From contig NZ_CP042467.1 in the NCBI RefSeq assembly GCF_007993755.1, positions 3,186,001 to 3,250,000 of the forward strand: a DNA stretch of 64,000 bases. The letters run 5' to 3'. The notes under the pieces are model-generated. The model was not told the DNA's origin, ran no database searches, and worked only from the letters and a program-made list of their open reading frames with translations. Shown one piece after another: positions 10,483 through 62,616 of this stretch (position 1 is the first letter of the stretch; every line of letters begins with the position of its first letter). Origin of the DNA: Microvenator marinus. GTDB lineage: Bacteria > Myxococcota_A > Bradymonadia > Bradymonadales > Bradymonadaceae. Position numbers and translations under genes: made by a program.

Positions 10483-10631
10483 GGGGCTGTCTTTCCTATA
10501 CATGTTGTGTAGCTCAGATTGGCCTTAGAATTGACACCATTCATCTGAGGAGGACAAGGGGGCTGTCTTTCCTATACATGTTGTGTAGCTCAGATTGGCC
10601 TTAGAATTGACACCATTCATCTGAGGAGGAC
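10483..10631. repeat. Perfect 73-bp direct tandem repeat
   Basis: The segment 10483-10555 recurs without change at 10559-10631, separated by three bases (AAG). Each unit runs from GGGGCTGTCTTTCCTATAC to CATCTGAGGAGGAC and contains TTGACA (10531-10536 and 10607-10612). The second unit runs straight into the right arm of a dispersed hairpin, while the first unit lacks that arm. The duplication therefore covers the left half of the hairpin element and its upstream sequence. It lies between the starts of two divergent genes, so it is probably a duplicated regulatory segment. Confidence 0.9.
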
Positions 10632-34499: not shown

Positions 34500-37063
34500 C
34501 CACACGTACTCCGGAACATCGCGCGCGGCCACGTGTGCAAGCACCTCGTCGGTTTGAGACGTTCGTGATGCCGGTGACGGCAGAGCTGGGCGAGGAAGCG
34601 CGACGGCTCGTGGGCGGAAAGGCGTATGGACTGGGCCTCGCGATGCGCGCCGAGCTCAACGTGCCGCGGGCGTTTGTGGTCACCACAGCGGCTTTCGACG
34701 CGATGGTGGAGTCGGTGATCACCCAGGTTCAGGACATTCACGAACTGCGCGATGCGCTGCTCAATGCGCCGCTCCCCACCATGCTCCAAGACGAGCTCGA
34801 GGAGCTATTCTCCGAGGGCCAGTGGGCCGTGCGCTCGAGTGCGGTGGAAGAAGACGGGGCGCGGAGTTTTGCCGGCCAACAACACTCGGTCCTGGGTGTG
34901 CGCGGCGCCGACGCGATCATGCGAGGGATTCGCGAGGTCTGGGCTAGCCTTTGGGACCCGGGAGCGCTCGCGTACCGAGCTCGTCTTGCGGTAGACGGCA
35001 TGCCGCAATCCATGGCGGTGGTGATTCAGGAGATGGTCAACCCGGATTTTGCGGGCGTCCTCTTCACCCAAAACCCGGTCACGCATCAGGCCGACGAAGC
35101 CGTGGTTTCTGTAGCGCTTGGCCTCGGCACCGCGGTGGTTGGGGGCGAGGCAACAGAGACCTTCTTTTTGGAGCGTCCATCTGGGTATTTGAAGCGTCAT
35201 GAGACCTCGACCCCAGGCGAGAAACCCTTGTTGCGGGGCCCGATCCTCGAGCATTTTGCCCGAATCTCGGATCGCGTCGAAAGGCTTTTCCTCAAAGGCG
35301 TGGACGTGGAGTGGGCCTTCAACGAAGGCGAGATCTACGTCTTACAATTGCGCGAGATTACGACCGGACACGACGATGGAGCGCAGTCTGTCTGGAGCAA
35401 CGCGAATGTCGGAGAGGCTCTGCCGGGCGTCGCCACACCGCTGACCTGGTCGATCCTTCGGGACTTCAGCGCACGGGGCTTTAAGCAGGCCTTTGGGGCG
35501 CTTGGGTTAGACGTGGAGCCGGAAGCGGAGCTCGTGGGCAGCTTTCACGGCCGAATTTTCCTCAACCTAAGCGAGTTTGTTCGGATCGCGAGCGCGATTC
35601 CAGTGCTCTCGCCCGATACCTTGTTAAACATGGCGGGCGGCGGCGGTGTAGAGCAGCTCAGTGATGTGGCGCGCGAGAGTTCAAAGAAATTCATCGCGAG
35701 ACTTCCGCAAACCTTACCCAGAATCGTTGGAACACAAGTGGCGGCACCGCTGCTCGCGCCGTTTTGGGAAGCGCATTTTCGAGCGCGTTGCGAGATGTTC
35801 TTTGAGCGCGACCTCTACCGACTTAGCCAGCGGGCGCTCGAGAGCGAGCTGGAAGATCTTGAAAAACTCTTCGACCGTACCGGCCTTATGATGTTGGCGG
35901 TAAGCTCGAATTTCATGCTCTCTTACGTGCTCACGACCGAATACCTGAAATGGTTTGGTGTGGGCCCCGAGATTGGGAACGAGAAACTCCTTCAGGGGCT
36001 GCACGTGACCAGTGCGGAGCCTGGCAAGGCTTTGCTCGAACTCGGAAGAATTGCTCGGCGCTCGATGCGTCTTCGTCGCATTCTTTCGGGCGATTCGGCC
36101 GAGGTTTATGCCGAGCTTCAGAAAGCATCGAAGCACGACGATGTCCGACATTTCTTGGATGAGCTGAAGAGCTTCCAGGAGAATTTTGGGCACCGTGCGC
36201 CACGCGAGGCTGAGCTTGCGACACCACGATGGCGCGAAGACGTGGTCTTTGTTTTCGACGTGCTCCGCGGGTTTATCGACTCGCCCCACCTTCCGTCACC
36301 GCGCGAGGTTGAGCGCGAGTCAGAGCGAGCGCGTGACGAACTTCATGCCCTAGTTTCGCGGGCCCTGCTGCCCGGTTCTCTGCAAGTTTTTGAGGCCTTG
36401 CTTGGCATGATGCGTGCCAACGCGGAGCGCCGCGAATCCATGCGGGCACGCGTTGTTGATGGGCTCGATATGTACCGACACTTCTTTCTCGAGTGCGGTC
36501 GCCGAATGACTCAGATGTCCATCATCAGACGACAGGAGGACATCTTTTTCCTCAAGATTGAAGAGATTCGTGCGTGGCTCAAGGATATCAATGAAGGGCG
36601 CGATTTCCGGCGGCGAATCATCGTTCGACGCGCGATTTTCGAGTCGTTCAAGAGTCTGCCTGACCCACCTTCGACCTTTGTTTTGAAAGGCTCGCAGATG
36701 GTCTGGAACGTCAATCAGGAGGCGCTCGAAGGCCGAAGCGAACTGGCTGGACTTGCGGCAAGCCCTGGACGAGCGACTGGGCGTGCTCGTGTGATTTTGA
36801 ACCCTGCCGGTGCGACGGTTGAACCCGGAGAAATCCTGGTGGTTCCGTACGCCGATGTGGGCTGGACCCCACTCTTTGTGGCGGCCGCCGGAGTGGTGAT
36901 GGAGCTCGGCGGGCCGTTGAGCCACGCCTCGATTGTCGCGCGTGAGTTCCGGATTCCAGCGGTCGTAAACGTTCATTCGCCGCGCGTCACTCAGGTGATC
37001 AAGACCGGCGACTTGATCACCGTGGACGGAGAGCGCGGAATTGTCCTCCTACATGACGAGTGA
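34496..37063 (+). CDS. Rifampicin phosphotransferase-like / PEP synthase-like dikinase
   Basis: An 855-residue protein from ATG 34496, which overlaps the cutA stop. An N-terminal ATP-binding domain has GGKAYGLGLAMRAELNVPRAFVVTT (core GGKAYGLGLAMR), RSSAVEEDGARSFAGQQHS (catalytic lysine/ATP grasp) and VIQEMVNPDFAGVLFTQNPVT (core FAGVLFTQNP). A C-terminal swivelling His domain near residue 804 has GGPLSHASIVAREFRIPAVV, in which the His carries the phosphate. The PEP/pyruvate-binding barrel of true PEP synthase is absent and the total length, about 860, matches rifampicin phosphotransferases (ATP domain, antibiotic domain, His domain). The substrate is not established; other dikinases with this plan also exist. 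Confidence 0.75.
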   Translation: MTTRTPEHRARPRVQAPRRFETFVMPVTAELGEEARRLVGGKAYGLGLAMRAELNVPRAFVVTTAAFDAMVESVITQVQDIHELRDALLNAPLPTMLQDELEELFSEGQWAVRSSAVEEDGARSFAGQQHSVLGVRGADAIMRGIREVWASLWDPGALAYRARLAVDGMPQSMAVVIQEMVNPDFAGVLFTQNPVTHQADEAVVSVALGLGTAVVGGEATETFFLERPSGYLKRHETSTPGEKPLLRGPILEHFARISDRVERLFLKGVDVEWAFNEGEIYVLQLREITTGHDDGAQSVWSNANVGEALPGVATPLTWSILRDFSARGFKQAFGALGLDVEPEAELVGSFHGRIFLNLSEFVRIASAIPVLSPDTLLNMAGGGGVEQLSDVARESSKKFIARLPQTLPRIVGTQVAAPLLAPFWEAHFRARCEMFFERDLYRLSQRALESELEDLEKLFDRTGLMMLAVSSNFMLSYVLTTEYLKWFGVGPEIGNEKLLQGLHVTSAEPGKALLELGRIARRSMRLRRILSGDSAEVYAELQKASKHDDVRHFLDELKSFQENFGHRAPREAELATPRWREDVVFVFDVLRGFIDSPHLPSPREVERESERARDELHALVSRALLPGSLQVFEALLGMMRANAERRESMRARVVDGLDMYRHFFLECGRRMTQMSIIRRQEDIFFLKIEEIRAWLKDINEGRDFRRRIIVRRAIFESFKSLPDPPSTFVLKGSQMVWNVNQEALEGRSELAGLAASPGRATGRARVILNPAGATVEPGEILVVPYADVGWTPLFVAAAGVVMELGGPLSHASIVAREFRIPAVVNVHSPRVTQVIKTGDLITVDGERGIVLLHDE

Positions 37064-38307
37064 TGCGCCGGCTCTTTGATGCAGTAGACAATCTGGTCCT
37101 TTGTAGAATTCGGGCGGGATGGGGTGCGGTTGCAGCCGTGCACTGGGGCATGTTGCTCCTGACCGGCAAGGCCGAGGCCGAGATCGCGGGCTGGGCGGCT
37201 CCGATTCCCTATATCGGTTTTGAATGGTTGGTGCGCCTGAGCCCGGCTTGGATGATGGGTCTCGTGTGGACCGCATTCCTCTGCGCGATCTTAGTAGCGG
37301 TGGGTCTATTCTACCGGGTGGCGATGCCGATCCTTCTGGGTATCTGGGCGTACGTGCTCTGGCACGATATCGGGATGTACAGCAACTTTTCGTACATCTC
37401 GATCCTCACGGGATTTTGGTTGATGCTGGGGCCGGCGGCTGGACGGGTTTCTCTGGACGCAAAGCTCTTTGCTAGCCGGCGCGCCGACGAGACACCGGTC
37501 TGGGTGCTCTGGATGCTCAGATTCCAGGTTGGGGTGGCCTATTTTTACGGTGGTGTGATCAAGTTCAACAGCGATTGGATTGCCGGCGAGCCGCTTGGGC
37601 CGTGGCTTGCGGAGTCGTCGCACTGGCCGGTGATCGGGGAGTGGCTGACGTGGCGCCCTTTGGTCTTGGGAATGTCGTGGGCGGGGTTGTTCTTCGATCT
37701 GACGATCGCGTTTTGGCTACTCTGGCCGCGCGCGCGCCCGTGGGCTTTTGGGGCGGCCGTCTTCTTCCACATCACGAACTATGTCCTGCTTTCCGTGGGC
37801 TTCCTACCCTTTATGATGATCGTGGTGACCGGCGCATTCTGGGAGTTTTCCGGGCGCAAGGCGCGGCCTGTGGCGAAGATTCGGGAGCGGGCGCTATTGG
37901 CGTTGATGGCTGTGTGGACGATCACCCAGGCTTTGATTCCACTCAGACACCATCTCTATCCGGGTGACGGGCGCATCACGTACGAGGGACAGCGGTATTC
38001 GTGGTGGTGGCGTCATGCGCGCCAGGAGGTCAAGGCCAAAGTTTGGGTGGAAGTGGACGGCGTTCGCCAACCAATTCATCCACCGGACTATCTAAATCCT
38101 GCGCAATACTCCTTAGTCTCAGACCCGCATGCCCTGGTGATTTGGGCGCATTGGTTAAAAACCCACCCCGATTTTGGTGGCCAGGTGACCGGCGTGTTTG
38201 CACAAATAGAGGTGAGTCTGAATGGCCACCCTTTTGTGGTGTTGGTTTCCGACGATATTGACCTCATTAGGCATCCCATCACCCTAAGACATTACGATTT
38301 CTTGTAA
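37063..38307 (+). CDS. HTTM/vitamin K-dependent gamma-carboxylase-like membrane protein
   Basis: About 414 residues from ATG 37063, which overlaps the dikinase stop; a GTG at 37060 is an alternative. Several transmembrane helices are visible (VAAVHWGMLLLTG, LVWTAFLCAILVAVGLF, VLLSVGFLPFMMIVV). The motif HLYPGDGRITYEGQRYSWWWRH near residue 296 matches the conserved HLYPGD/RFSW segment of vitamin K-dependent carboxylases and HTTM proteins, in which Lys/His residues oxidise quinol and carboxylate Glu. Bacterial homologues' substrates are unknown. It shares an operon with TetR, CutA and a dikinase. Enzyme activity is inferred. Confidence 0.75.
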   Translation: MRRLFDAVDNLVLCRIRAGWGAVAAVHWGMLLLTGKAEAEIAGWAAPIPYIGFEWLVRLSPAWMMGLVWTAFLCAILVAVGLFYRVAMPILLGIWAYVLWHDIGMYSNFSYISILTGFWLMLGPAAGRVSLDAKLFASRRADETPVWVLWMLRFQVGVAYFYGGVIKFNSDWIAGEPLGPWLAESSHWPVIGEWLTWRPLVLGMSWAGLFFDLTIAFWLLWPRARPWAFGAAVFFHITNYVLLSVGFLPFMMIVVTGAFWEFSGRKARPVAKIRERALLALMAVWTITQALIPLRHHLYPGDGRITYEGQRYSWWWRHARQEVKAKVWVEVDGVRQPIHPPDYLNPAQYSLVSDPHALVIWAHWLKTHPDFGGQVTGVFAQIEVSLNGHPFVVLVSDDIDLIRHPITLRHYDFL

Positions 38308-38328: not shown

Positions 38329-38512
38329 GCACAAAAAACGACAAAAAACCGACGCCTTGCGTCACCCGCTGACGCGACACCGAGAGGTTGCGGCACGCTA
38401 TATGCCGCCCTTTAAATTAATCAAAAAAATGGCCGGGTTTTCCGTTGACAGGTTTCGGCGCGGTTTGTCAGCCTTGTCTTACCGACAAAATCATATTGTT
38501 CTTGGAGAAGAC

Positions 38513-41500
38513 ATGCGAATCGCAGGAATCATTGTTGCGCTGCTCTTTGTAGCGGCGTGTGGAGATAGCTCAACCCCCTCAACACCGGGTGACACAAACG
38601 GGACCATGCCGCCTTCTGACTGTGCTGCAGGAGAGACCGGTTCCGAGTGTACACCGTGCCCCGAAGGCACGTATTGTGATGGCACGAGCGAGCCTGTTGA
38701 GTGTGAAGACGGGACATGGGATCACGACGAGGATGCCGCGACCGAGTGTCAGGATTGGCAGAGTTGTGAGCCCGGTTTTGCACCAGAGAGTGGCAGTGCC
38801 GTCAGTGATGCGACCTGTGTCGCTTGCCCTGAAGGCACCTTTGGTGATGGCAATGGCGCGTGTACGTCGTGGACCACGTGTCAGCCAGGCGAGCGGATTG
38901 CCGAAATGGGGTCTGCGACTCAAGACCGCGTATGTGAGACATGCGCTGAAGGGACATTCTCAGAAGGTGAGAATGTCACTACGTGTCAGGCATGGCAGAC
39001 GTGTGAGCCGGGGACGTATGTGAGTCAATCCCCATCGGCCAGCCAGAATCGTGGATGTGCGGCGTGTGCCCCGGGAAGCTTCTCGACGGACGAGGACGCC
39101 GCTTCGTGCCCCCCCTGGACGACGTGTCCCGCAGGGACCTCGGTCACGAGCGCCGGAAGCTCGACGCAAGATCAAACGTGTGAGGCCTGTCCTGAGGGGA
39201 CCTTTACCCAATTCCCCGATTCTGCAACGTGTACCCCGCTTGAGGCGTGCCCGGCGGGGACCTATCAGGTCAGCCCGGGAGCCGCAGATGAGGCGCCTGA
39301 GTGTGAAACCTGTGAGACCGGCTCCTTCTGTGCCGGTGACGACGTACCGCCTGTGAATTGTCCTGCAGGCACCTGGGATCACGACCAAAACCCGGCGAGC
39401 ACCTGTGTGGACTGGACGACCTGTGAGGCAGGTGAGTACGTAAAGACGCCTGGCTCGGCACTTGTGGATCAGAGCTGTGAGGCCTGTGCCGAAGGCACGT
39501 TCTCAACACAACCCAATGTCGAGGCCTGCCTTCCAGCCGGTGCGTGTGATGCGGGGAGTGTGGAAATCACACCCGCGACCGAGACCGCACCTGCCGTGTG
39601 TGAGGCCTGTGAGCCAGGCACCTACTGTGCCGGTGCAGGTGCCTCTGCGGTGAGCTGCGGCAATGGGACCTGGGACCACGACGCCAATCCTGCGACACCC
39701 TGTCGCGTCTGGACCGCGTGTGTCGCGGGTCAATTTGTGGAAGTGGCTGGCACAGACCTCTCAGACCAGACCTGTGCGAGCTGCCCCGCGGACACCTTCA
39801 GCGATACTTCCAATGCCACACAATGTCTGGGGTGGACGGTGTGTGCTGCAGGTACCCGTGAAACCGCGGCACCCTCGGCCACATCAGACCGTGTATGCAC
39901 TGCGTGTGCCGCCGGAACCTACTGCCCAGGAGGAAGTTCATCATCGCAAGGTTGTGAGAATGACACGTGGGACCACGACCAGGATGCAGCGACGGCGTGC
40001 GAGAGCTGGTCGACGTGTGAGCCGAGTCAATACGTAGCCACGGCCGGCAGTGCGACTACTGACCGTCAATGCGACGTGTGTCCCGAAGGCACCTATTCCG
40101 ACCAGAACAATGTGATGTCTTGCACCCCGTTTGGTGCCTGTGCGCCCGGGACGGTCGAGGTCACGGAAGCCACGGCTACTACGCCAGCCGTATGTGATCC
40201 GTGTCCAGCCGGCTCCTATTGCCCGGGGGGCTCGGCACCCGAGGAATCCTGCACCGCGGACACATGGGACCACGACGCCAATCCGGCGACCCCCTGCGTC
40301 AATTGGACGGTGTGTGCTGCCGGACAATTTGTTCAAGACACCGGCACGAGCCTCAGCGACCGCGAGTGCACATCGTGTGCGGCCGAAACGTATAGCGAGG
40401 GTCAAAACGCAGCGTCGTGCACTGCTTGGACTATCTGCGCAGCCGGAACGCATGAAACCAGCGCAGCTTCTGCCACTCAAGACCGCGTATGTACCGCGTG
40501 TGCCGCCGGAACCTATTGCCCTGGAGGGACTGACCCTCAAGTGACCTGCACCGCAGGCACCTGGGACCATGATGCAAGTGCTTCGACCGCATGTCAGCCG
40601 TGGCAGGACTGCCAGGCCGGCAGCGCTGCACAGGACGGCACCTCCACCACCAACCGAACGTGCACGACCTGTCAGGCGGGCACCTACGCGAGCCAGATGA
40701 ATGCGTCGACCTGTCTGCCATGCTCCGCCGGAGAATATTGTCCAGAAGGCGCGACGGCGCGTGAGGCGTGTCCTGCGGGCACGTTTGACGACGACCTGAA
40801 CGCCACAACAGTGTGCGCCTCCTGTGGCGAGGGTGTCTATTGTGCGGGAGGACTCAACCCACCCACCGCCTGCACAGGCAACCAGTACGACCATGACCTC
40901 GATGCGAGCACAGCCTGTGAAGACTGCGCGAGCGGATATCGTGCCGCGGCAGATCACCTCTCGTGCGAAAATATCGACGAATGTGCCGAGGAGATGGACA
41001 CCTGTGCTCAGGTGTGTCAGGACACCTCCGGTAGCTATACCTGCGCCTGTGACACGGGCTACACGCTACAGGCCGACCAGCAAACATGTCAGGCCAACCA
41101 GTACTGGGTCACATTGGACACGCAGGGCGGAACTCCAACCACGAATCCTACGGCAGTCACCTACGGTCAGAGCTACGGTAGCATTTTCCCTGGCAACATT
41201 GCCCGGGTGGGCTATAGCTTTTTGGGATGGTTTACTCAGGCTTCAGGTGGGCAACTCATTACGAATGTCGCAACCGTAAACATCGCATCCAACCACACCT
41301 TGTATGCGCAGTGGGAAGCTAATACGTACACGGTAACGCTCGATCTTGCCGATGGATTTACGCCAGCGTCCACACTTCATGTCAACTTTGACGCTCCCTA
41401 CACCGGGCTGCCAACTCCCACCCGGGTCGGTTACGATTTCTTGAGTTGGGAGACAAGTGATGGGACAGAAGTGACCGAAACCGATCTTGTGTCCATTGCT

Positions 41501-42517
41501 GCGAACCACACCTTGACTGCCCAGTGGAGCGACTGGAACTTCAAGGCACAACAAGTGTCAGGGACATGGGTGGGAGCGGGACCGGTATGCGCGATCAGCA
41601 GTGGAAACGTGTACTGTTGGGGGGATAACAACTACGGTCAACTTGGGACCGGTGACTTCATCAGCAGCCATACCACACCAAGACAGGTATTGGGCATGAA
41701 TAATGTCATTTCGATAAGTGCAGGTGTTTTTGCGTGCGCTGTCAAGAGTGATGGAACGGTTTGGTGTTGGGGACTCAATACTTACGGCCAACTGGGGGAT
41801 GGGACCACCAGTTCATCCAATGTACCGGTCCAGGTGGTAGGGCTAAACAATGTTGTTGAAGTAGGTACCGGAGAATTCCATACGTGTGCCCTCAAAGGTG
41901 ACGGCACAGTGTGGTGCTGGGGGAGGAATCAGTACGGGCAGACTGGAACCGGAGCGCCTTCGTTAGTTCCAGTTCAAGTGCCCGGAGTTTCGGGGGCGAT
42001 TGACCTGGAAGCTGGCGTGCACCATACGTGTGTGGTTAAAAACGATGGTACTGTGTGGTGCTGGGGCTGGAATCAGTACGGGCAGAGCAGTGCCTGCACG
42101 TCATGTGTTTCTAATATAAGTCCGGTTGAAGTGGTAGGTGTCACAAATGCGGTTAAAGTAACAACTGGGTACACACATTCTTGCGCCTTGAAAAACGATG
42201 GGACCGTGTGGTGTTGGGGCCAAGCAACTAGGACAGGGAACCCTTCTTCGTCGTATCCCCAGGCCGTGTTGAACTTAACGGATGTCGCAGATGTGTCTGC
42301 ATGGGAGATTACCTGCGCAGCGAAACATGATGGAAGCGTCTGGTGTTGGGGACCCAGTAACGTCAACAATTTCTTCGACTATGGATCTGTAGTGACGTCT
42401 TACCAGGTTCCTACGCTAATGCCCCATGCTCCTCTTATTCAACGATTCAGCAGTACCATCCCGTTTCACGGAATCGAATTCGATGAGACGGTGAGATACG
42501 GCTGGTGGTTACCCTGA
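38513..42517 (+). CDS. Giant Cys-rich/EGF/InlB/RCC1 lipoprotein, copy A
   Basis: A 1,334-residue lipoprotein (lipobox LLFVAACGDS) from ATG 38513. The longest open frame starts at 38357, but its first residues overlap the upstream region and precede the signal peptide. About residues 40-800 are repeats of the GCC2/GCC3 or ephrin-receptor type: CPEGTYCDG, WDHDANPATPC, CAAGTYCPGG, each about 45 residues. An EGF-like calcium-binding module (NIDECAEEMDTC...CACDTGYTLQ) follows at about 820-860, then InlB-like B-repeats (YWVTLDTQGG, ASNHTLYAQWE) and RCC1-type repeats (VYCWGDNNYGQLGTGD) from about residue 1022. The design is typical of adhesive surface proteins. A diverged 4,234-bp tandem copy follows it. 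Confidence 0.85.
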   Translation: MRIAGIIVALLFVAACGDSSTPSTPGDTNGTMPPSDCAAGETGSECTPCPEGTYCDGTSEPVECEDGTWDHDEDAATECQDWQSCEPGFAPESGSAVSDATCVACPEGTFGDGNGACTSWTTCQPGERIAEMGSATQDRVCETCAEGTFSEGENVTTCQAWQTCEPGTYVSQSPSASQNRGCAACAPGSFSTDEDAASCPPWTTCPAGTSVTSAGSSTQDQTCEACPEGTFTQFPDSATCTPLEACPAGTYQVSPGAADEAPECETCETGSFCAGDDVPPVNCPAGTWDHDQNPASTCVDWTTCEAGEYVKTPGSALVDQSCEACAEGTFSTQPNVEACLPAGACDAGSVEITPATETAPAVCEACEPGTYCAGAGASAVSCGNGTWDHDANPATPCRVWTACVAGQFVEVAGTDLSDQTCASCPADTFSDTSNATQCLGWTVCAAGTRETAAPSATSDRVCTACAAGTYCPGGSSSSQGCENDTWDHDQDAATACESWSTCEPSQYVATAGSATTDRQCDVCPEGTYSDQNNVMSCTPFGACAPGTVEVTEATATTPAVCDPCPAGSYCPGGSAPEESCTADTWDHDANPATPCVNWTVCAAGQFVQDTGTSLSDRECTSCAAETYSEGQNAASCTAWTICAAGTHETSAASATQDRVCTACAAGTYCPGGTDPQVTCTAGTWDHDASASTACQPWQDCQAGSAAQDGTSTTNRTCTTCQAGTYASQMNASTCLPCSAGEYCPEGATAREACPAGTFDDDLNATTVCASCGEGVYCAGGLNPPTACTGNQYDHDLDASTACEDCASGYRAAADHLSCENIDECAEEMDTCAQVCQDTSGSYTCACDTGYTLQADQQTCQANQYWVTLDTQGGTPTTNPTAVTYGQSYGSIFPGNIARVGYSFLGWFTQASGGQLITNVATVNIASNHTLYAQWEANTYTVTLDLADGFTPASTLHVNFDAPYTGLPTPTRVGYDFLSWETSDGTEVTETDLVSIAANHTLTAQWSDWNFKAQQVSGTWVGAGPVCAISSGNVYCWGDNNYGQLGTGDFISSHTTPRQVLGMNNVISISAGVFACAVKSDGTVWCWGLNTYGQLGDGTTSSSNVPVQVVGLNNVVEVGTGEFHTCALKGDGTVWCWGRNQYGQTGTGAPSLVPVQVPGVSGAIDLEAGVHHTCVVKNDGTVWCWGWNQYGQSSACTSCVSNISPVEVVGVTNAVKVTTGYTHSCALKNDGTVWCWGQATRTGNPSSSYPQAVLNLTDVADVSAWEITCAAKHDGSVWCWGPSNVNNFFDYGSVVTSYQVPTLMPHAPLIQRFSSTIPFHGIEFDETVRYGWWLP

Positions 42518-42746
42518 CTCTCTATCAGGAAAGTGGAGCCCAGATTTCACATAAAAACCCCACCCAAAAAAGCGACAAAAAATCGACACCTTGCGTCACC
42601 TGATGACGCAACCAACGGGCGTTGCGGCACGCTATATGCCGAATTTTAAATTAATCAAAAAAATGGCCGGGTTTTCCGTTGACAGGTTTCGGCGCGGTTT
42701 GTCAGCCTTGTCCTACCGACAAAATCATATTGTTCTTGGAGAAGAC

Positions 42747-44309
42747 ATGCGAATCGCAGGAATCATTGTTGCGCTGCTCTTTGTAGCAGCGTGTGGAGAT
42801 AGCTCACCCCCCTCAACACCGGGTGACACAAACGGGACCATGCCGCCTTCTGACTGTGCTGCAGGAGAGACCGGTGCCGAGTGTACACCGTGCCCCGAAG
42901 GCACGTATTGTGATGGCAAGAGTGAGCCTGTTGAGTGTGAAGACGGGACATGGGATCACGACCAGGATGCCGCGACCGAGTGTCAGGATTGGCAGAGTTG
43001 TGAGCCGGGCTTTGCACCAGAAAGTGGCAGTGCTGTGAGTGATGCGACCTGTGTCGCGTGCCCTGAAGGCACCTTTGGTGATGGCAATGGCGCGTGTACG
43101 TCGTGGACCACGTGTCAGCCAGGCGAGCGGATTGCCGAAATGGGGTCTGCGACTCAAGACCGCGTATGTGAGACATGCGCTGAAGGGACATTCTCAGAAG
43201 GTGAGAATGTCACTACGTGTCAGGCATGGCAGACGTGTGAGCCGGGGACGTATGTGAGTCAATCCCCATCGGCCAGCCAGAATCGTGGATGTGCGGCGTG
43301 TGCCCCGGGAAGCTTCTCGACGGACGAGGACGCCGCTTCGTGCCCCCCCTGGACGACGTGTCCCGCAGGGACCTCGGTCACGAGCGCCGGAAGCTCGACG
43401 CAAGATCAAACGTGTGAGGCCTGTCCTGAGGGGACCTTTACCCAATTCCCCGATTCTGCAACGTGTACCCCGCTTGAGGCGTGCCCGGCGGGGACCTATC
43501 AGGTCAGCCCGGGAGCCGCAGATGAGGCGCCTGAGTGTGAAACCTGTGAGACCGGCTCCTTCTGTGCCGGTGACGACGTACCGCCTGTGAATTGTCCTGC
43601 AGGCACCTGGGATCACGACCAAAACCCGGCGAGCACCTGTGTGGACTGGACGACCTGTGAGGCAGGTGAGTACGTAAAGACGCCTGGCTCGGCACTTGTG
43701 GATCAGAGCTGTGAGGCCTGTGCCGAAGGCACGTTCTCAACACAACCCAATGTCGAGGCCTGCCTTCCAGCCGGTGCGTGTGATGCGGGGAGTGTGGAAA
43801 TCACACCCGCGACCGAGACCGCACCTGCCGTGTGTGAGGCCTGTGAGCCAGGCACCTACTGTGCCGGTGCAGGTGCCTCTGCGGTGAGCTGCGGCAATGG
43901 GACCTGGGACCACGACGCCAATCCTGCGACACCCTGTCGCGTCTGGACCGCGTGTGTCGCGGGTCAATTTGTGGAAGTGGCTGGCACAGACCTCTCAGAC
44001 CAGACCTGTGCGAGCTGCCCCGCGGACACCTTCAGCGATACTTCCAATGCCACACAATGTCTGGGGTGGACGGTGTGTGCTGCAGGTACCCGTGAAACCG
44101 CGGCACCCTCGGCCACATCAGACCGTGTATGCACTGCGTGTGCCGCCGGAACCTACTGCCCAGGAGGAAGTTCATCATCGCAAGGTTGTGAGAATGACAC
44201 GTGGGACCACGACCAGGATGCAGCGACGGCGTGCGAGAGCTGGTCGACGTGTGAGCCGGGTCAATACGTATTCGCAGCCGGCAGTGCAACCACAAACCGT
44301 CAATGTTGA
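42747..44309 (+). CDS. 5' fragment of giant lipoprotein, copy B (frameshifted)
   Basis: The tandem paralogue starts at ATG 42747 with the same signal peptide and lipobox. This part reads 520 residues of Cys-rich repeats and ends at a TGA (44307-44309) right after GSATTNRQC. In copy A the corresponding codons read GSATTDRQC then DVCPEGTYSD. Copy B reads TGTTGAC where copy A reads TGCGAC, so there is one extra base. A truncated lipoprotein may still be made. The segment 43059-44258 is base-for-base identical to copy A as far as I can compare, while flanking regions differ. Confidence 0.75.
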   Translation: MRIAGIIVALLFVAACGDSSPPSTPGDTNGTMPPSDCAAGETGAECTPCPEGTYCDGKSEPVECEDGTWDHDQDAATECQDWQSCEPGFAPESGSAVSDATCVACPEGTFGDGNGACTSWTTCQPGERIAEMGSATQDRVCETCAEGTFSEGENVTTCQAWQTCEPGTYVSQSPSASQNRGCAACAPGSFSTDEDAASCPPWTTCPAGTSVTSAGSSTQDQTCEACPEGTFTQFPDSATCTPLEACPAGTYQVSPGAADEAPECETCETGSFCAGDDVPPVNCPAGTWDHDQNPASTCVDWTTCEAGEYVKTPGSALVDQSCEACAEGTFSTQPNVEACLPAGACDAGSVEITPATETAPAVCEACEPGTYCAGAGASAVSCGNGTWDHDANPATPCRVWTACVAGQFVEVAGTDLSDQTCASCPADTFSDTSNATQCLGWTVCAAGTRETAAPSATSDRVCTACAAGTYCPGGSSSSQGCENDTWDHDQDAATACESWSTCEPGQYVFAAGSATTNRQC

Positions 44310-46737
44310 CGTGTGTCCCGAAGGCACCTATTCCGACCAGAACAATGTGATGACTTGCACCCCGTTTGGTGCCTGTGCGCCCGGCACGGTCGAGGTCGCA
44401 GAAGCCACGGCTACTACGCCAGCCGTATGTGATCCGTGTCCAGCCGGCTCCTATTGTGCAGGGGGCTCGGCACCCGAGGAGTCCTGCACCGCTGAGACAT
44501 GGGACCACGATGCGAACCCGGCGACCCCGTGCGTCAATTGGACCGTGTGTACTGCGGGACAATTTGTTCAAGCCGACGGCACGAGCCTCAGCGATCGCGA
44601 GTGTACACCGTGTGCGGCCGAAACGTATAGCGAGGGTCAAAACGCAGCGACCTGCACTGCTTGGACTATCTGCGCAGCCGGAACGCATGAAACCAGCGCA
44701 GCTTCTGCCACTCAAGACCGCGTGTGTACCGCATGTTCCGCCGGAACCTATTGCCCTGGAGGGACTGACCCTCAAGTGACCTGCACCGCAGGCACCTGGG
44801 ACCATGATGCGAGTGCTACGACCGCATGTCAGCCCTGGCAGGACTGCCAGGCCGGCAACGCCGCACAAGACGGCACCTCCACCACCAACCGAACGTGCAC
44901 GACCTGTCAGGCGGGGACCTACGCGAGCCAGATAAATGCGTCGACCTGTCTGCCATGCTCCGCCGGAGAATATTGTCCAGAAGGCGCTACGGCGCGTGAG
45001 GCCTGTCCTGCGGGCACGTTTGACGACGACCTGAACGCCACCACAGCGTGCGCCTCCTGTGGCGAGGGGGTCTATTGTGCGGGAGGAATCAGCCCACCCA
45101 CCGCATGCACCGGTAATCAGTACGACCATGACCTCGACGCAAGCACGGCGTGTGAAGACTGCGCAAACGGATATCGTGCCGCGGCAGATCACCTCTCGTG
45201 CGAAAATATCGATGAATGTGCTGAAGAGACAGACACGTGTGCTCAGGTGTGTCAGGACACCCCGGGTAGCTACACCTGCGCCTGTGATACGGGCTACACG
45301 CTTCAGGCGGACCAGCAAACATGTCAGGCTAACCAGTACTGGGTCACATTGGACACGCAGGGTGGAACTCCAACCACGAATCCTGCGGCAGTCACCTACG
45401 GTCAGAGCTACGGTGGCATTTTCCCCACCAATATAAGTCGTGTGGGTTATGGCTTCTTAGGCTGGTATAGTCAGCCTTCAGGCGGGCAACTGATCACCTC
45501 TTCTTCGACCGTAGACATCGCCTCCAACCACAGCCTCTATGCGCAGTGGGAAGCCAATACGTACACGGTAACGCTCGATTTTGCCGATGGATTGACGCCA
45601 GCTTCCACGCTGCAACTTACATTTGACGGCCCCTACACCGGGCTACCAACTCCCACACGGCTTGGTCACGAATTCTTGAGATGGCAGACCAGTAGCGGGA
45701 GCATTGTAACCGAAACCGATCTGGTAAGCATTGCCGGCAACCACACCTTGACTGCCCAGTGGAACTGGAACCTCAAGGCACAGGAGGTATCCGGAACAGG
45801 ATCGCCAACATGTGCCCTGAGCAGTGGAAACGTCCTTTGTTGGGGCTTCAATGACTACGGACAACAAGGTACCGGAGACAACATTTCCCCTACTACGACC
45901 CCGAGACAGGCACTAGGCATGCAAGACGTCATTTCAATAAGCACTGGTTACCGCTTCGCTTGTGCCGTAAAGACCGATGGTACAGTCTGGTGTTGGGGCG
46001 ATAACACTAGCGGCCAACTAGGAAATGGAACCCTCGCTATATCCAACGTGCCGGTTCAGGTATCGGTATTGACTGACGCCGTCCAGGTAGCAACTGGAAG
46101 AGAACACGCATGCGCACGCATGAACGACGGGTCTGTGTGGTGTTGGGGGCGCAACGGAACTGCCAGAGTAGGTGTTCCCGGAGCTCCAAACATCGTAACA
46201 ACTCCCGTCCAAGTGAGTGGGCTGAGTGATGCCACGATCGTGGATGCAGGGGAATTGCACACTTGTGCGGGAAAGAGTGACGGAAGCGTGTGGTGTTGGG
46301 GTGACAATCGAAACCGACAATCCTCACCTTACGTCGTGAGCAATGGGGCGTTCCCCGATGCAGTTGTGGGTGTCACCAATGCTGTGCTGGTCATCGCAGG
46401 AGCGGAACACACCTGTGTACTAAGGACCGATGAAACTGTGTGGTGTTGGGGAAATCAAACAAACACAGGTCATGGTGCGAGTCAGCCCCAAGCGAGCGGC
46501 TTAAACGATGTGGCTACCTTGAGTGCTGGAAATGTGACATGTGCCGCCAAACACGACGGCAGTGTTTGGTGCTGGGGGGATAACCATGGGTCAATGTTCA
46601 ACTACACTGCGACTGTGAACCCAACGCTTCCGACGCTCTTTCCTAATGCTCCACTGATCCAGGGATTTGGAGATTCTCACCCTGCGTGTGCCATCGAATT
46701 CGATGAGACCGTGAGATGCAACTGGTGGTTGCCTTGA
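44308..46737 (+). pseudogene. 3' fragment of giant lipoprotein, copy B (out of frame)
   Basis: This is the out-of-frame continuation of copy B. From DVCPEGTYSD the rest of the protein is intact in the +1 frame for 809 codons: more ephrin-like repeats, an EGF module (NIDECAEETDTC), InlB-like repeats (GYGFLGWYSQPS), and RCC1-like repeats (VLCWGFNDYGQQGTGD) to the terminal CNWWLP. No ribosome site or obvious start lies at the junction. It is likely silent unless the break is a sequence error or the frame is corrected by slippage; no slippery heptamer is visible. The RCC1 part differs from copy A by much more than the 5' part. Confidence 0.75.
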
Positions 46738-48385: not shown

Positions 48386-49489
48386 TCAAACTAGACAGAT
48401 CTGATAGTTTTCCTGGGAAACATCGAATGGTATCCGACCTTCTAAGACTTCCAACATAGCTCCGGATATGGCGCCGATGACTGGGACACATACTGAGTTC
48501 CCAAATTGCTTGTAGGCCTGACTATCGCTGACTGGCGAGTTCTCGCGACGGAACATTTCGACGAAATCCTTTGGAAACCCTTGTAGACGTGCGCATTCTG
48601 CTGGTGTGAGACGGCGCGGTCTCTCAAACCCTGCGTGGTTTATGAGAACTTCCGAGCCATCTTTGTAGTAACGAGCACTGAGCGTTCTTGTATACGATTC
48701 GGAGCCGTCAAAGAGGCTGTAGCCAAAGCCATTACCCTTTGCCCGATGTTTGGCTTTGTACTCCTTTAGGTACTCCCAAAGCCCGTCGCTGAGTTGGTAG
48801 CGTTCGTCTACCTTCTTGTCTAAGATGTAGCGAACACGGGGCCAGTCATCCTTGGCGCGGTACCGGAGGCGCTCTCGTTCGCGTTCACGCTCCATATTTG
48901 CGGCGACCTCCTCCCAGAAGGCCGTGAAATCGTACTCAGGTTGATCTAAGTCGAAATACTCGCGGTCGAAACCGATGATGAAAACACGTTCACGGTGCTG
49001 AGGAACGACATCCGCTGCATCCAGTATATTGGAGGTGAAAACGTATCCGATTTCATTCAGCGCATGTTCGATAACCCGCCACGTTCTGCCCTTATCGTGC
49101 CCTCTAAGGTTTTTGACGTTTTCCAGCAGAAAGGCTCTTGGGCGTTTCGCTGCCAGAATCTCCTTGATGTTGAAAAACAAGGTTCCCTTTGTCGGGTCAT
49201 TAAATCCGTGCGCCCTTCCAAGAGAGTTCTTCTTCGATACCCCGGCGATCGAAAACGGCTGGCATGGAAACCCACCTGCGAGGATGTCGTGGTCCGGTAC
49301 GTCTTCCGGATGAATCTGGGTGATATCCTCATTCCACACGTGAGAAGGGTCTTCAGAAAAATAGGCCTGATAAGTTTGCCTTGCATACTTATCAATCTCA
49401 GAAGTCATGACGCAATGAGCCCCAATCGGTTCCAAGCCCAGTCGAATGCCTCCGACCCCCGCAAACAAGTCGATAAATTTTAAGCTCAT
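48386..49489 (-). CDS. DNA (cytosine-5) methyltransferase
   Basis: A 367-residue m5C methylase. Motif I is FIDLFAGVGGIRLGL, motif IV holds the catalytic Cys in GGFPCQPFSIAG, motif VI has FLLENVKNL, motif VIII has PQHRERVFIIG (QxRxR), and motif X/IX sites are LTPAECARLQGFP and YKQFGNSVCVPV. All canonical motifs are present, so it is active by sequence. The next gene upstream, on the same strand, encodes an EcoRII-type endonuclease. It probably modifies that enzyme's site (family members recognise CCWGG or related sequences; not provable here). The start is ATG 49489. Confidence 0.95.
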   Translation of the reverse strand: MSLKFIDLFAGVGGIRLGLEPIGAHCVMTSEIDKYARQTYQAYFSEDPSHVWNEDITQIHPEDVPDHDILAGGFPCQPFSIAGVSKKNSLGRAHGFNDPTKGTLFFNIKEILAAKRPRAFLLENVKNLRGHDKGRTWRVIEHALNEIGYVFTSNILDAADVVPQHRERVFIIGFDREYFDLDQPEYDFTAFWEEVAANMERERERERLRYRAKDDWPRVRYILDKKVDERYQLSDGLWEYLKEYKAKHRAKGNGFGYSLFDGSESYTRTLSARYYKDGSEVLINHAGFERPRRLTPAECARLQGFPKDFVEMFRRENSPVSDSQAYKQFGNSVCVPVIGAISGAMLEVLEGRIPFDVSQENYQICLV

Positions 49490-49543
49490 AAGAAACCCCT
49501 GAACACATGTTCAATATCAACATCTTTGTGGCGAGTCAACGGG

Positions 49544-50743
49544 TTAAGGTTGAAGCCGTTGTCGTTCTTCGATCGTCTCAATAAAATCTCCGAGTCCAAG
49601 TAACCATTCGCGCTGAGTGGTCGAGTAGGTTGCCTGAAAACCGGTTGGAACAACGAGCTGTAGGTTATTGGCCCGCATCTCATCGGTTTGGTTTTCACTA
49701 ATTGCCCGCTGAAGCGTAAGCAAGTGTTTTCGCGGAATTCGACGCGCCTCCGCAAGGACTTGTCGCCAACGGTCTTTGCATGTCGATTTCACCCCAAGCA
49801 TAGCGAGGTTCACCTCGGGGTAGGCGGGATCGCGGTATTCTCTTGAACCTGGAAAAAGAAAGTCCGGTCGTGAGTGATCGTCAATCAAAGCTCCCCGCTC
49901 AAATCGTATCTCTCGTGTTGAGAAGATGTGTTCAACATGAATCTCGAAAGCGTGCCCCACGCGCGATTTACGGCGATTCTGAACGCTGAGCGAGTAGGAA
50001 ATGAAATCATCTACATCCTCAAACCCCTGGGCCAAGCGCTTCTCCACGAAGTGGGCTTCGTATGTGCGAAAGAGCGATTCTTCCCACTCCATCAAGTTTA
50101 TCAGATAAGTGTCGGGATCGTTTGAGGTCGTCTCGATTGTGTTACGAGCGAACTCCGAAAAGACCTTTGTCGAGGGAAACCGCCCATCAAACTGAAAGAG
50201 CATCTGTTCCAGATAGTTGGGCTGCAGAGGCGTAGGTTCTATCCCTATCTCTTCCAGAATGAGTTGGGCTGTGTATTCGAGTTCGACCTTCGAGAATTCA
50301 TCATGCTTCTCTTGGAAAGAATCCGTCGTGTTTGAGATCTGAAACAACCACGAGATTTGCCTCTCAATGCTAGAACTCGCCTTTACCACCATGAAGAGAA
50401 AACCACCGCCGGGGCGTTCTCCAATCACCAAGAGATCGTTGACTGATGCGCTATCCATAACGGGATTACCGGGGAAATAGAGCCGGTACTCCGCACTGCG
50501 AGTGGGGACATTTTCTCTGGAGTCGTACCAGGTCAGCTGCACGCGCTCAGTGATGGGTGGTTCATCATCCGTCAGGAACATGAAGTCCACCTCTAGCTTT
50601 CTTCGCGCTGAGCCAAGCACACGCTTGAGAGCGGCACTGCCGTTGAACTCATGTTGATTCGACTTGCGTAGATCCACCTCAACCGCTGAAAGTCTCTTGT
50701 AGGCGATCGCAGTAAAATGGTCGGAAAGGTATCCTCTCTTCAT
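49544..50743 (-). CDS. EcoRII-type restriction endonuclease
   Basis: 399 residues from ATG 50743 (GTG 50752 is an alternative). The C-terminal domain matches EcoRII-C: the region SRVGHAFEIHVEHIF, RPDFLFPGSREYRDP and the catalytic VKSTCKDRWRQVLAEA, then HLLTLQRAISENQTDEM and LQLVVPTGFQ. The PD...K-x-K arrangement (Asp in RPDFLFP, Lys in VKSTCK) is the PD-(D/E)XK site that cuts DNA. The N-terminal half would be the effector/target-binding part that makes EcoRII depend on two sites. Length, about 400, matches EcoRII. It lies 54 bases upstream of the methylase. Confidence 0.9.
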   Translation of the reverse strand: MKRGYLSDHFTAIAYKRLSAVEVDLRKSNQHEFNGSAALKRVLGSARRKLEVDFMFLTDDEPPITERVQLTWYDSRENVPTRSAEYRLYFPGNPVMDSASVNDLLVIGERPGGGFLFMVVKASSSIERQISWLFQISNTTDSFQEKHDEFSKVELEYTAQLILEEIGIEPTPLQPNYLEQMLFQFDGRFPSTKVFSEFARNTIETTSNDPDTYLINLMEWEESLFRTYEAHFVEKRLAQGFEDVDDFISYSLSVQNRRKSRVGHAFEIHVEHIFSTREIRFERGALIDDHSRPDFLFPGSREYRDPAYPEVNLAMLGVKSTCKDRWRQVLAEARRIPRKHLLTLQRAISENQTDEMRANNLQLVVPTGFQATYSTTQREWLLGLGDFIETIEERQRLQP

Positions 50744-50760
50744 AGAAACCACTCGTTCGA

Positions 50761-51447
50761 ATGTCCCAACAGGCCGCTGACGAAAAACTAGAACTGCTCC
50801 AGCATACTATGATGAACTGGTGGGTCCAGGAGCATTTTGACTATCCGTGGCGAGATTCTTCCGAGCCTGATTGGAAACGTCTGATTACGGAAGTTCTTCT
50901 ACAGCGTACCAATGCCGCAGCGGTTAAGCGGTTATACGTGGATTTCTTCTTCAAATATCCCACGGCCGAAAGCCTGGCCTCTGCACCTGTGGAAGAGGTG
51001 GAGCAAGCCATTCACAGTCTTGGTCTGCGCTGGCGTGCGCAGTATTTGCCTGGTTTAGCGTCGAATATCGCAGATGGTGTACCAGATAGCTCCGATGAGC
51101 TGATGAAGCTGCCTGGTGTTGGCCCATACGTTACGGGCGCGTTCATGGTTTTACACCGGAACACGTCATCAACCTTTGTTGACGCCAACGTGGTGAGGCT
51201 GCTCGGTCGGTACCTCGGCTTTGAATGGGATGGGGAAACTCGACGGAAGAAGTGGTTGTTGGACCACGTCGATGCTCTCTTCAGTCATGGCTACACCCCG
51301 AGCGAGTTTGGCTATGCTCTTTTGGATTTCTCGCGCGAAGTCTGTGGGCGCGCACCCCAGTGCCAGAGTTGTGAAGCACGAACCCAATGTGCGTACTTTG
51401 CGACTCTAGAGGCTAATAATAGAGCGTTGGCTCAGGATAATTCTTGA
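50761..51447 (+). CDS. MIG-like thymine-DNA mismatch glycosylase
   Basis: A 228-residue HhH-GPD protein. It has ITEVLLQRTNAAAVKRLY, then the hairpin LPGVGPYVTGAFMVL, then DANVVRLLGRYLGF with the catalytic Asp. The Tyr after GVGP replaces the Lys of endonuclease III and is the hallmark of the archaeal MIG T:G-mismatch glycosylase. The C-terminal iron-sulfur Cys set is CGRAPQC-QSC-EARTQC, with the first gap one residue shorter than usual. It would repair the T:G mismatches produced when m5C deaminates at sites methylated by the neighbouring enzyme. Only about 17 bases separate its start from that of the divergent endonuclease. Confidence 0.85.
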   Translation: MSQQAADEKLELLQHTMMNWWVQEHFDYPWRDSSEPDWKRLITEVLLQRTNAAAVKRLYVDFFFKYPTAESLASAPVEEVEQAIHSLGLRWRAQYLPGLASNIADGVPDSSDELMKLPGVGPYVTGAFMVLHRNTSSTFVDANVVRLLGRYLGFEWDGETRRKKWLLDHVDALFSHGYTPSEFGYALLDFSREVCGRAPQCQSCEARTQCAYFATLEANNRALAQDNS

Positions 51448-62076: not shown

Positions 62077-62616
62077 TTATTCTCCCTTTCCTTTGCCTTT
62101 ACCTTTTGCCTTACCCTGAGGACCTTTCGCGTTCTGAATACGCTCCATGGCCTTGGCGTGGCGTTTGGCTTCTTTGTCGCGGAGCATTGCTGCCTTTTCA
62201 ATCAGCTTATCGTTGCCCTTCTCTTTGCCGATCCCTTCGATACGGTCGATTTGAGCGAGGCGTCGGGCGTGCTTTTCCTTTTCCATTTCGAGACGCTTCT
62301 CGTTTGAGATTGGAGCTGCGCCTTCGTCTTCGCCGGTGCCGTCTTCGCCTTCGACTTCCTCGGCTTCTTCGGCGTCATCGTCAGACTTGCCTTTGTCGTC
62401 AGACTTGCCTTTGTCGTCAGACTTTCCTTTGCCTTTGTCGTCAGACTTACCTTTGTCGTCAGACTTGCCTTTTTCTTTCTCGTCTTTGTCCTTCTTACCT
62501 TTGGCCTTTTCTGAAGCTTCGTCAGACTTGCCTTTGCCTTGTGCGGCAAGAGGAGTTGAACCAAAGGTCAGACCCAGAAGGCCTAAGACCACGAGTACCC
62601 ATTTCATTTTCTGCAT
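62077..62616 (-). CDS. Charged, repeat-containing exported protein
   Basis: About 179 residues from ATG 62616 (MQKMKW), behind AGGAAGG; a longer open frame to 62667 has no clear site. A signal peptide (VLVVLGLLGLTFGSTPLAA) leads into KGKSDE/SDDKGK repeats (KGKSDDKGKSDDKGK), then an acidic segment (DDDAEEAEEVEGEDGTGEDEGA) and a basic helical tail (KHARRLAQIDRIEGIG). The charged repeats look disordered. No family is recognised. It is upstream of the small lipoprotein, and a dispersed hairpin lies in the gap between it and the ABC transporter. Confidence 0.65.
   Translation of the reverse strand: MQKMKWVLVVLGLLGLTFGSTPLAAQGKGKSDEASEKAKGKKDKDEKEKGKSDDKGKSDDKGKGKSDDKGKSDDKGKSDDDAEEAEEVEGEDGTGEDEGAAPISNEKRLEMEKEKHARRLAQIDRIEGIGKEKGNDKLIEKAAMLRDKEAKRHAKAMERIQNAKGPQGKAKGKGKGKGE

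What the first reader, a model, noticed from the sequence alone, without database searches (positions are those of the whole stretch)
38513..46737. Tandem duplication of a giant surface lipoprotein with a 1.2-kb identical tract
Seen: copy B starts 4,234 bases after copy A with no indels for at least 1.6 kb. Copies differ slightly at the 5' end, are identical from about 38825 to 40024 (43059 to 44258), and then diverge more and more towards the RCC1 region. Inference: a recent gene-conversion tract over older divergent copies. The surface region may be under diversifying selection.
Basis: partly seen in the sequence, partly recalled or inferred. Interest (0 to 1): 0.5.

Follow-up and report, generated by a model that had tools for sequence, protein, structure and literature searches.

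The report
Twin surface-protein genes, one broken
A marine predatory bacterium carries two neighbouring copies of a long cysteine-rich surface protein gene that have been made alike at their front ends by copying DNA between them while their back ends drifted apart, and the second copy has recently been broken by a reading-frame shift; this is an ordinary kind of gene evolution.

Summary
Copy B lies 4,234 bases after copy A. The copies are exactly identical over 38825-40024 (1,200 of 1,200 bases), with sharp edges. Flanks differ by 3.1% (left) and 6.8% (right), then by 20% and 40% towards the 3' end. Silent-site divergence follows the same steps (0.12, 0, 0.17-0.26, 0.63, saturated), so the pattern reflects history, not constraint. 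Segmental gene conversion between old tandem paralogues is the best reading. The rest of B stays open in another frame to 46737, so the break is recent. Nothing supports diversifying selection. The genome matches Microvenator (Allomicrovenator) marinus V1718 by length. The product has a lipobox, TNFR-like cysteine repeats, an EGF-like domain, two List-Bact repeats and an RCC1 propeller. No close relative of the pair was found in 56 related genomes, so strain comparison was impossible. An assembly artefact is unlikely but not excluded. Close precedents are mycobacterial PE_PGRS17/18 and Brucella omp2a/omp2b. New member of a known kind; modest interest.

The parts
38411..38512 (+). Upstream stretch shared with copy B (42645-42746), probably holding the promoter and leader; the weaker resemblance reaches back to about 38331
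   Evidence: Alignment and change points; promoter-like matches in both copies, (consensus matches only)
38513..42517 (+). Copy A, intact, 1,334 aa: lipobox-type signal (LFVAAC), TNFR_c6-like cysteine-rich array, EGF-like domain, two Listeria-Bacteroides repeats, RCC1 propeller
   Evidence: lipobox read by eye
38825..40024 (+). Identical tract, copy A side (0 differences in 1,200)
40025..41190 (+). Right flank of the tract in copy A, 6.8% divergent from B
41191..41550 (+). Middle tier, about 20% divergent (Listeria-Bacteroides repeats)
41551..42517 (+). RCC1 head of copy A, about 40% divergent from B in DNA, silent sites saturated
42747..44309 (+). Copy B 5' part: 520 codons of the lipoprotein frame, then TGA at 44307-44309
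43059..44258 (+). Identical tract, copy B side
44259..44307 (+). Dense cluster of differences ending in the frameshift, directly right of the tract
44308..46737 (+). Copy B 3' part: 809 codons in the shifted frame, still open and with purifying-selection signature (rest of the cysteine array, EGF, List-Bact repeats, RCC1)

Best explanation
An old in-place tandem duplication of one large surface lipoprotein gene. Since then RecA-type homologous recombination has copied stretches of the 5' (stalk) half between the copies more than once; the last exchange left the 1.2-kb identical tract (shown: the stepped silent-site pattern; inferred: the enzyme and the number of events). The 3' RCC1 heads became too different to recombine and drifted under purifying selection. 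Recently copy B took a frameshift just right of the tract and is now probably a pseudogene, or makes only a truncated stalk. Copy A makes the full protein, most likely an outer-membrane lipoprotein with a disulphide-rich stalk carrying a beta-propeller binding head for surface contact or adhesion (function inferred from domains only).
For: 1,200 identical columns against a longest run of 372 in 20,000 shuffles. P(0 of 1,200) at the flanks' own rates is about 10^-17 (left) and 10^-37 (right). dS by segment 0.12 / 0 / 0.17 / 0.26 / 0.63 / saturated. Change-point segmentation keeps the inner tract's edges at all three penalties. The copies' RCC1 heads are each other's closest match: 63-64%, against at most 49% at 17 other RCC1 sites in the genome for A's head and at most 50% outside the genome for B's head in the listed hits; so one whole-gene duplication is enough. 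All 22 TNFR_c6 matches in the genome lie in these two genes. Pairing stayed in register: same-number 297-nt units are 94-100% alike between copies for units 1, 2, 4 and 5, while units 1-4 within A are only 51-62% alike. B's frame downstream of the shift kept third-position bias (13/7/49) and dN/dS about 0.14. RCC1 fold supported by Pfam and by a predicted model of A's head.
Against: Only one genome holds the pair, so no tract was seen to differ between strains, and the direction of conversion cannot be told. The outer left edge (38411) appears at only one of three penalties. The assembly pipeline included short-read gap filling, which could in principle create false identity or a false indel. 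The cluster of differences at the tract edge (11 of 80 in the first 48 columns; P 0.034 when any 48-base window may count) has no donor within the window and is not explained.
Confidence: 0.8

Rival explanations
1. Assembly artefact: short-read gap filling or consensus collapse gave the 1.2-kb tract its perfect identity and may have made the frameshift.
For: Hybrid assembly with Celera, SOAPdenovo and GapCloser on a repeat; the frameshift sits only 48 bases from the tract edge.
Against: PacBio reads were part of the data. The frameshift is not in a long homopolymer, and differences on its left make the site distinguishable from A. The remaining tiers (3%, 7%, 20%, 40%) are graded, which collapse would not produce.
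Confidence: 0.1
2. Recent duplication of the whole gene, followed by replacement of the 3' half of one copy with a divergent homologue (head swap by horizontal transfer), with no conversion between the copies.
For: Very unequal divergence of the two halves.
Against: One swap predicts one boundary; the data show steps on both sides of an identical core. No head closer than 63% to B's was found besides A's in the listed hits of 57 genomes.
Confidence: 0.06
3. Strong constraint on the stalk and relaxed or diversifying selection on the head, without recombination.
For: Amino-acid differences are concentrated in the head, and within it in loops (54% identity) more than strands (74%), Fisher p 0.0017.
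Against: Silent sites show the same pattern: dS 0 in the tract, saturated in the head. Loops more variable than strands is usual for any folded protein. dN is below dS in every segment.
Confidence: 0.02
4. Copy B is still used: programmed +1 frameshifting or re-initiation after the TGA keeps the downstream part expressed.
For: The downstream frame is long, open and shows purifying selection. A GTG lies directly behind the TGA in the new frame.
Against: Selection before a recent break leaves the same signature. A re-initiated product would lack a signal peptide, and no slippery site or recoding structure was recognised (by eye; no inverted repeat of 8 or more in 43950-44450).
Confidence: 0.02

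Closest known systems
PE_PGRS17/PE_PGRS18 of Mycobacterium tuberculosis (PMC1762029; abstract, outline and passages seen)
   Same: Near-adjacent duplicate repeat-rich genes with a conversion tract between them; in M. canettii one copy (PE_PGRS18) carries a one-base frameshift. The paper says recombination in mycobacteria needs heterology of no more than 10-12%, comparable to the fall-off here between the 6.8% and 20% tiers.
   Different: Conversion was shown there across many strains; here one genome only. Unrelated proteins.
Brucella omp2a/omp2b porin pair (PMC7050475; passages seen)
   Same: Two neighbouring outer-membrane protein genes, one silent, joined by segmental conversion tracts that leave 82-100% identity.
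   Different: Inverted orientation; the silent copy is a known donor with seen effects on surface loops. No such effect is shown here.
Myxobacterial TraA self-recognition receptor (PMC6372800; passages seen)
   Same: Myxococcota cell-surface receptor with a polymorphic head domain and a more conserved cysteine-rich repeat region.
   Different: TraA has an N-terminal PA14-like variable domain and MYXO-CTERM sorting; here the cysteine repeats follow a lipobox and the head is a C-terminal RCC1 propeller.

Membership tests
Tandem paralogue pair with segmental gene conversion | Identical or near-identical tract with sharp edges inside more divergent paralogues, beyond chance | tested here: met
   1,200 clean columns; longest clean run 372 in 20,000 shuffles; change points
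Tandem paralogue pair with segmental gene conversion | Silent sites follow the same pattern (not protein constraint) | tested here: met
   dS steps
Tandem paralogue pair with segmental gene conversion | Tracts differ between strains | not testable with these tools
   No second genome with the pair: listed matches outside the own genome are 52% identical or less in 57 genomes, list cut
Silent-cassette antigenic variation (pilE/pilS or vlsE type, recalled) | Several partial silent donor copies lacking start or promoter | tested here: not met
   Only two copies, both with start and upstream stretch
Silent-cassette antigenic variation (pilE/pilS or vlsE type, recalled) | Expressed gene changes by directional conversion in a population | not testable with these tools
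   Single genome
RCC1-repeat proteins (Pfam PF00415/PF13540) | RCC1 repeats over the curated cut-off and propeller fold | tested here: met
   (mean pLDDT 73.7, ends poor)
Bacterial lipoprotein | Signal peptide with lipobox cysteine | tested here: inconclusive
   MRIAGIIVALLFVAAC read by eye in both copies; no predictor run
TraA-type kin receptor | PA14-like variable domain and MYXO-CTERM | tested here: not met
   No PA14-like or MYXO-CTERM hit among the 11 Pfam families of copy A

The most novel reading that the evidence does not exclude
A two-head contact-receptor locus: recombination keeps the stalk halves alike so that they serve as a landing site, and copy B, silent through its frameshift, is a store for a second propeller head that exchange 3' of the break could place on copy A's stalk.
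Probability: 0.05. Interest if true: 0.5.

Novelty: new member of a known kind. Interest (0 to 1): 0.25.

Why it matters
It is a clear, well-bounded record of repeated conversion between neighbouring surface genes in Myxococcota, with exchange kept in register despite internal repeats and lost where divergence passes roughly 7-20%. It also corrects an annotation trap: copy B should be labelled a frameshifted gene, not a second giant lipoprotein. Beyond that it is ordinary.

Tried and rejected
Diversifying selection: rejected on dN and dS. Head exchange with another paralogue in this genome or a relative: rejected, since the two heads are each other's nearest match in the listed hits. A short donor for the edge cluster 44259-44305: no match better than 25 of 47 elsewhere in the window, apart from copy A itself, which is noise. 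Strain comparison: not possible; the genome search gave no second genome of the genus among those searched, and the search for related loci in genome contigs gave four distant loci (it warns that records of the window's own genome may be left out). Whole-gene tandem copies at four relatives' loci (L073, L074, L075, L069): 0 of 4, only in-gene repeats and short direct repeats; L075 is a short contig. These are four of many matching loci. Recoding at the break: no support. PMC3482391 was opened for RCC1 and its one passage was irrelevant.

Literature: no paper in the held library holds both 'Microvenator marinus' and 'RCC1'; the listings showed none that describes this protein. This says nothing about papers outside that library. 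Ungapped unit 3 (0.485) was dropped from the unit comparison because it straddles the indel.

Full report
Setting. The window is bases 3186001-3250000 of a single 5,847,748-base contig. That length equals the genome size listed for Microvenator marinus V1718 in a table passage of PMC11509652, a predatory Bradymonadia strain; PMC12872784 (search listing and start of abstract only) renames it Allomicrovenator marinus. The identification rests on genome length alone. Its assembly used PacBio and Illumina data with Celera Assembler, SOAPdenovo and GapCloser (PMC7460792, section 14 read).

What is there. Copy A is an intact 1,334-codon gene, 38513-42517. Pfam places nine TNFR_c6 stretches, an EGF-like domain, two Listeria-Bacteroides repeats and RCC1 repeats in it. 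A lipobox-like cysteine follows the signal stretch (read by eye). There are 103 cysteines, 83 of them in the first 820 residues. Copy B starts 4,234 bases later with the same leader. Its lipoprotein frame ends at TGA 44307-44309 after 520 codons, because of a one-base difference from A near 44306. From there B is open in another frame to 46737 and carries the same later domains.

The identity profile. Penalised change-point segmentation at its mildest penalty gives 22.5% divergence at 38331-38410, 3.1% at 38411-38824, 0 of 1,200 at 38825-40024, 6.8% at 40025-41190, 20% at 41191-41550 and 40% to the end. The inner tract's edges appear at all three penalties; the 38411 edge appears at one of three, and the 41190 edge at two of three. 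In 20,000 shuffles of the 96 mismatches the longest clean run was 372, against 1,200 seen. Nei-Gojobori-type dS is 0.12, 0, 0.17 (40073-40600), 0.26 (40601-41195), 0.63 (41196-41560) and saturated (41561-42514); dN is 0.017, 0, 0.031, 0.028, 0.15 and 0.36. Silent sites therefore show the same steps as the protein, which constraint alone would not give. The 48-base cluster beside the tract has dS 0.67 and dN 0.15 on 16 codons, too few to interpret.

In-register exchange. The cysteine array holds 99-residue units whose marker motif recurs at residues 287, 386, 485, 584 and 683. Units 1-4 within copy A are 51-62% alike and unit 5 is 31-35% like the others, while the same unit in A and B is 94-100% alike for units 1, 2, 4 and 5 (unit 3 straddles the indel and was left out). 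So exchange went between matching units of the two genes and did not change unit number.

Age of the break. Downstream of the shift, 40073-41190 differs from A at codon positions 1, 2 and 3 in 13, 7 and 49 places, and dN/dS over 40073-41195 is about 0.14 (0.029/0.211), the same as left of the tract (0.017/0.121). The shifted frame has no stop over 809 codons. In the last RCC1 unit B keeps a cysteine pair that A lacks. B was thus a working gene for most of its history. The break could also be a sequencing error.

Relatives. In this genome the stalk occurs only in these two genes (22 of 22 TNFR_c6 matches). A's head has 43 matches: the pair itself and 41 at 17 other sites, at most 49% identical. 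In 57 genomes (own included) 47 hold some match to copy A, the best by E-value outside the own genome being 47% over residues 6-339; listed identities there do not pass 52% and the list was cut. B's head finds A at 63% and otherwise at most 50% among matches at E 1e-30 or better. Four relatives' loci were read for a whole-gene tandem copy: 0 of 4. The pair therefore looks private to this lineage in what could be searched.

The head. AlphaFold2 on A's head gave mean pLDDT 73.7 with poor ends, and its best PDB matches are RCC1-type propellers, UVR8 first, in line with sequence search. A and B heads agree at 74% of strand and 54% of loop positions in residues 40-295 (p 0.0017), the usual pattern of a folded domain. 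The stalk's best PDB matches are TNF-receptor ectodomains, and its EGF part matches protein S and LDL receptor.

Mechanism. Shown: two copies, stepped silent divergence, an identical core, a broken second copy. Inferred: RecA-type exchange, more than one event, direction unknown, escape of the 3' half once divergence grew. The fall-off between the 6.8% and 20% tiers fits the limit of 10-12% heterology quoted for mycobacteria in PMC1762029 (passage). The surface role is inferred from the domains.

Comparison. PE_PGRS17/18 is the nearest precedent, even to a one-base frameshift in one copy of some strains; omp2a/omp2b is another. TraA is similar in plan only. The finding is a new member of a known kind.

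Noticed in passing
48386-51447: C5-cytosine methyltransferase and EcoRII-C endonuclease genes side by side on the minus strand, with a divergent HhH-GPD base-excision glycosylase gene; the last may repair deaminated methylcytosine (recalled idea, not tested).
   Followed up: partly
37060-38307: HTTM protein with a vitamin-K-carboxylase lumenal domain directly upstream of copy A, whose EGF part matches protein S; one of two HTTM genes in the genome. The link is only positional.
   Followed up: partly
44259-44307: Dense cluster of differences directly beside the tract's right edge, 11 of 80 in 48 columns; no donor found in the window.
   Followed up: partly
41465-42514 and 45694-46734: The last RCC1 unit keeps a cysteine pair in broken copy B that intact copy A lacks.
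   Followed up: no
10483-10631 and 62378-62484: Short direct repeats elsewhere in the window (73 bases at 100%; 56 bases at 91%).
   Followed up: no
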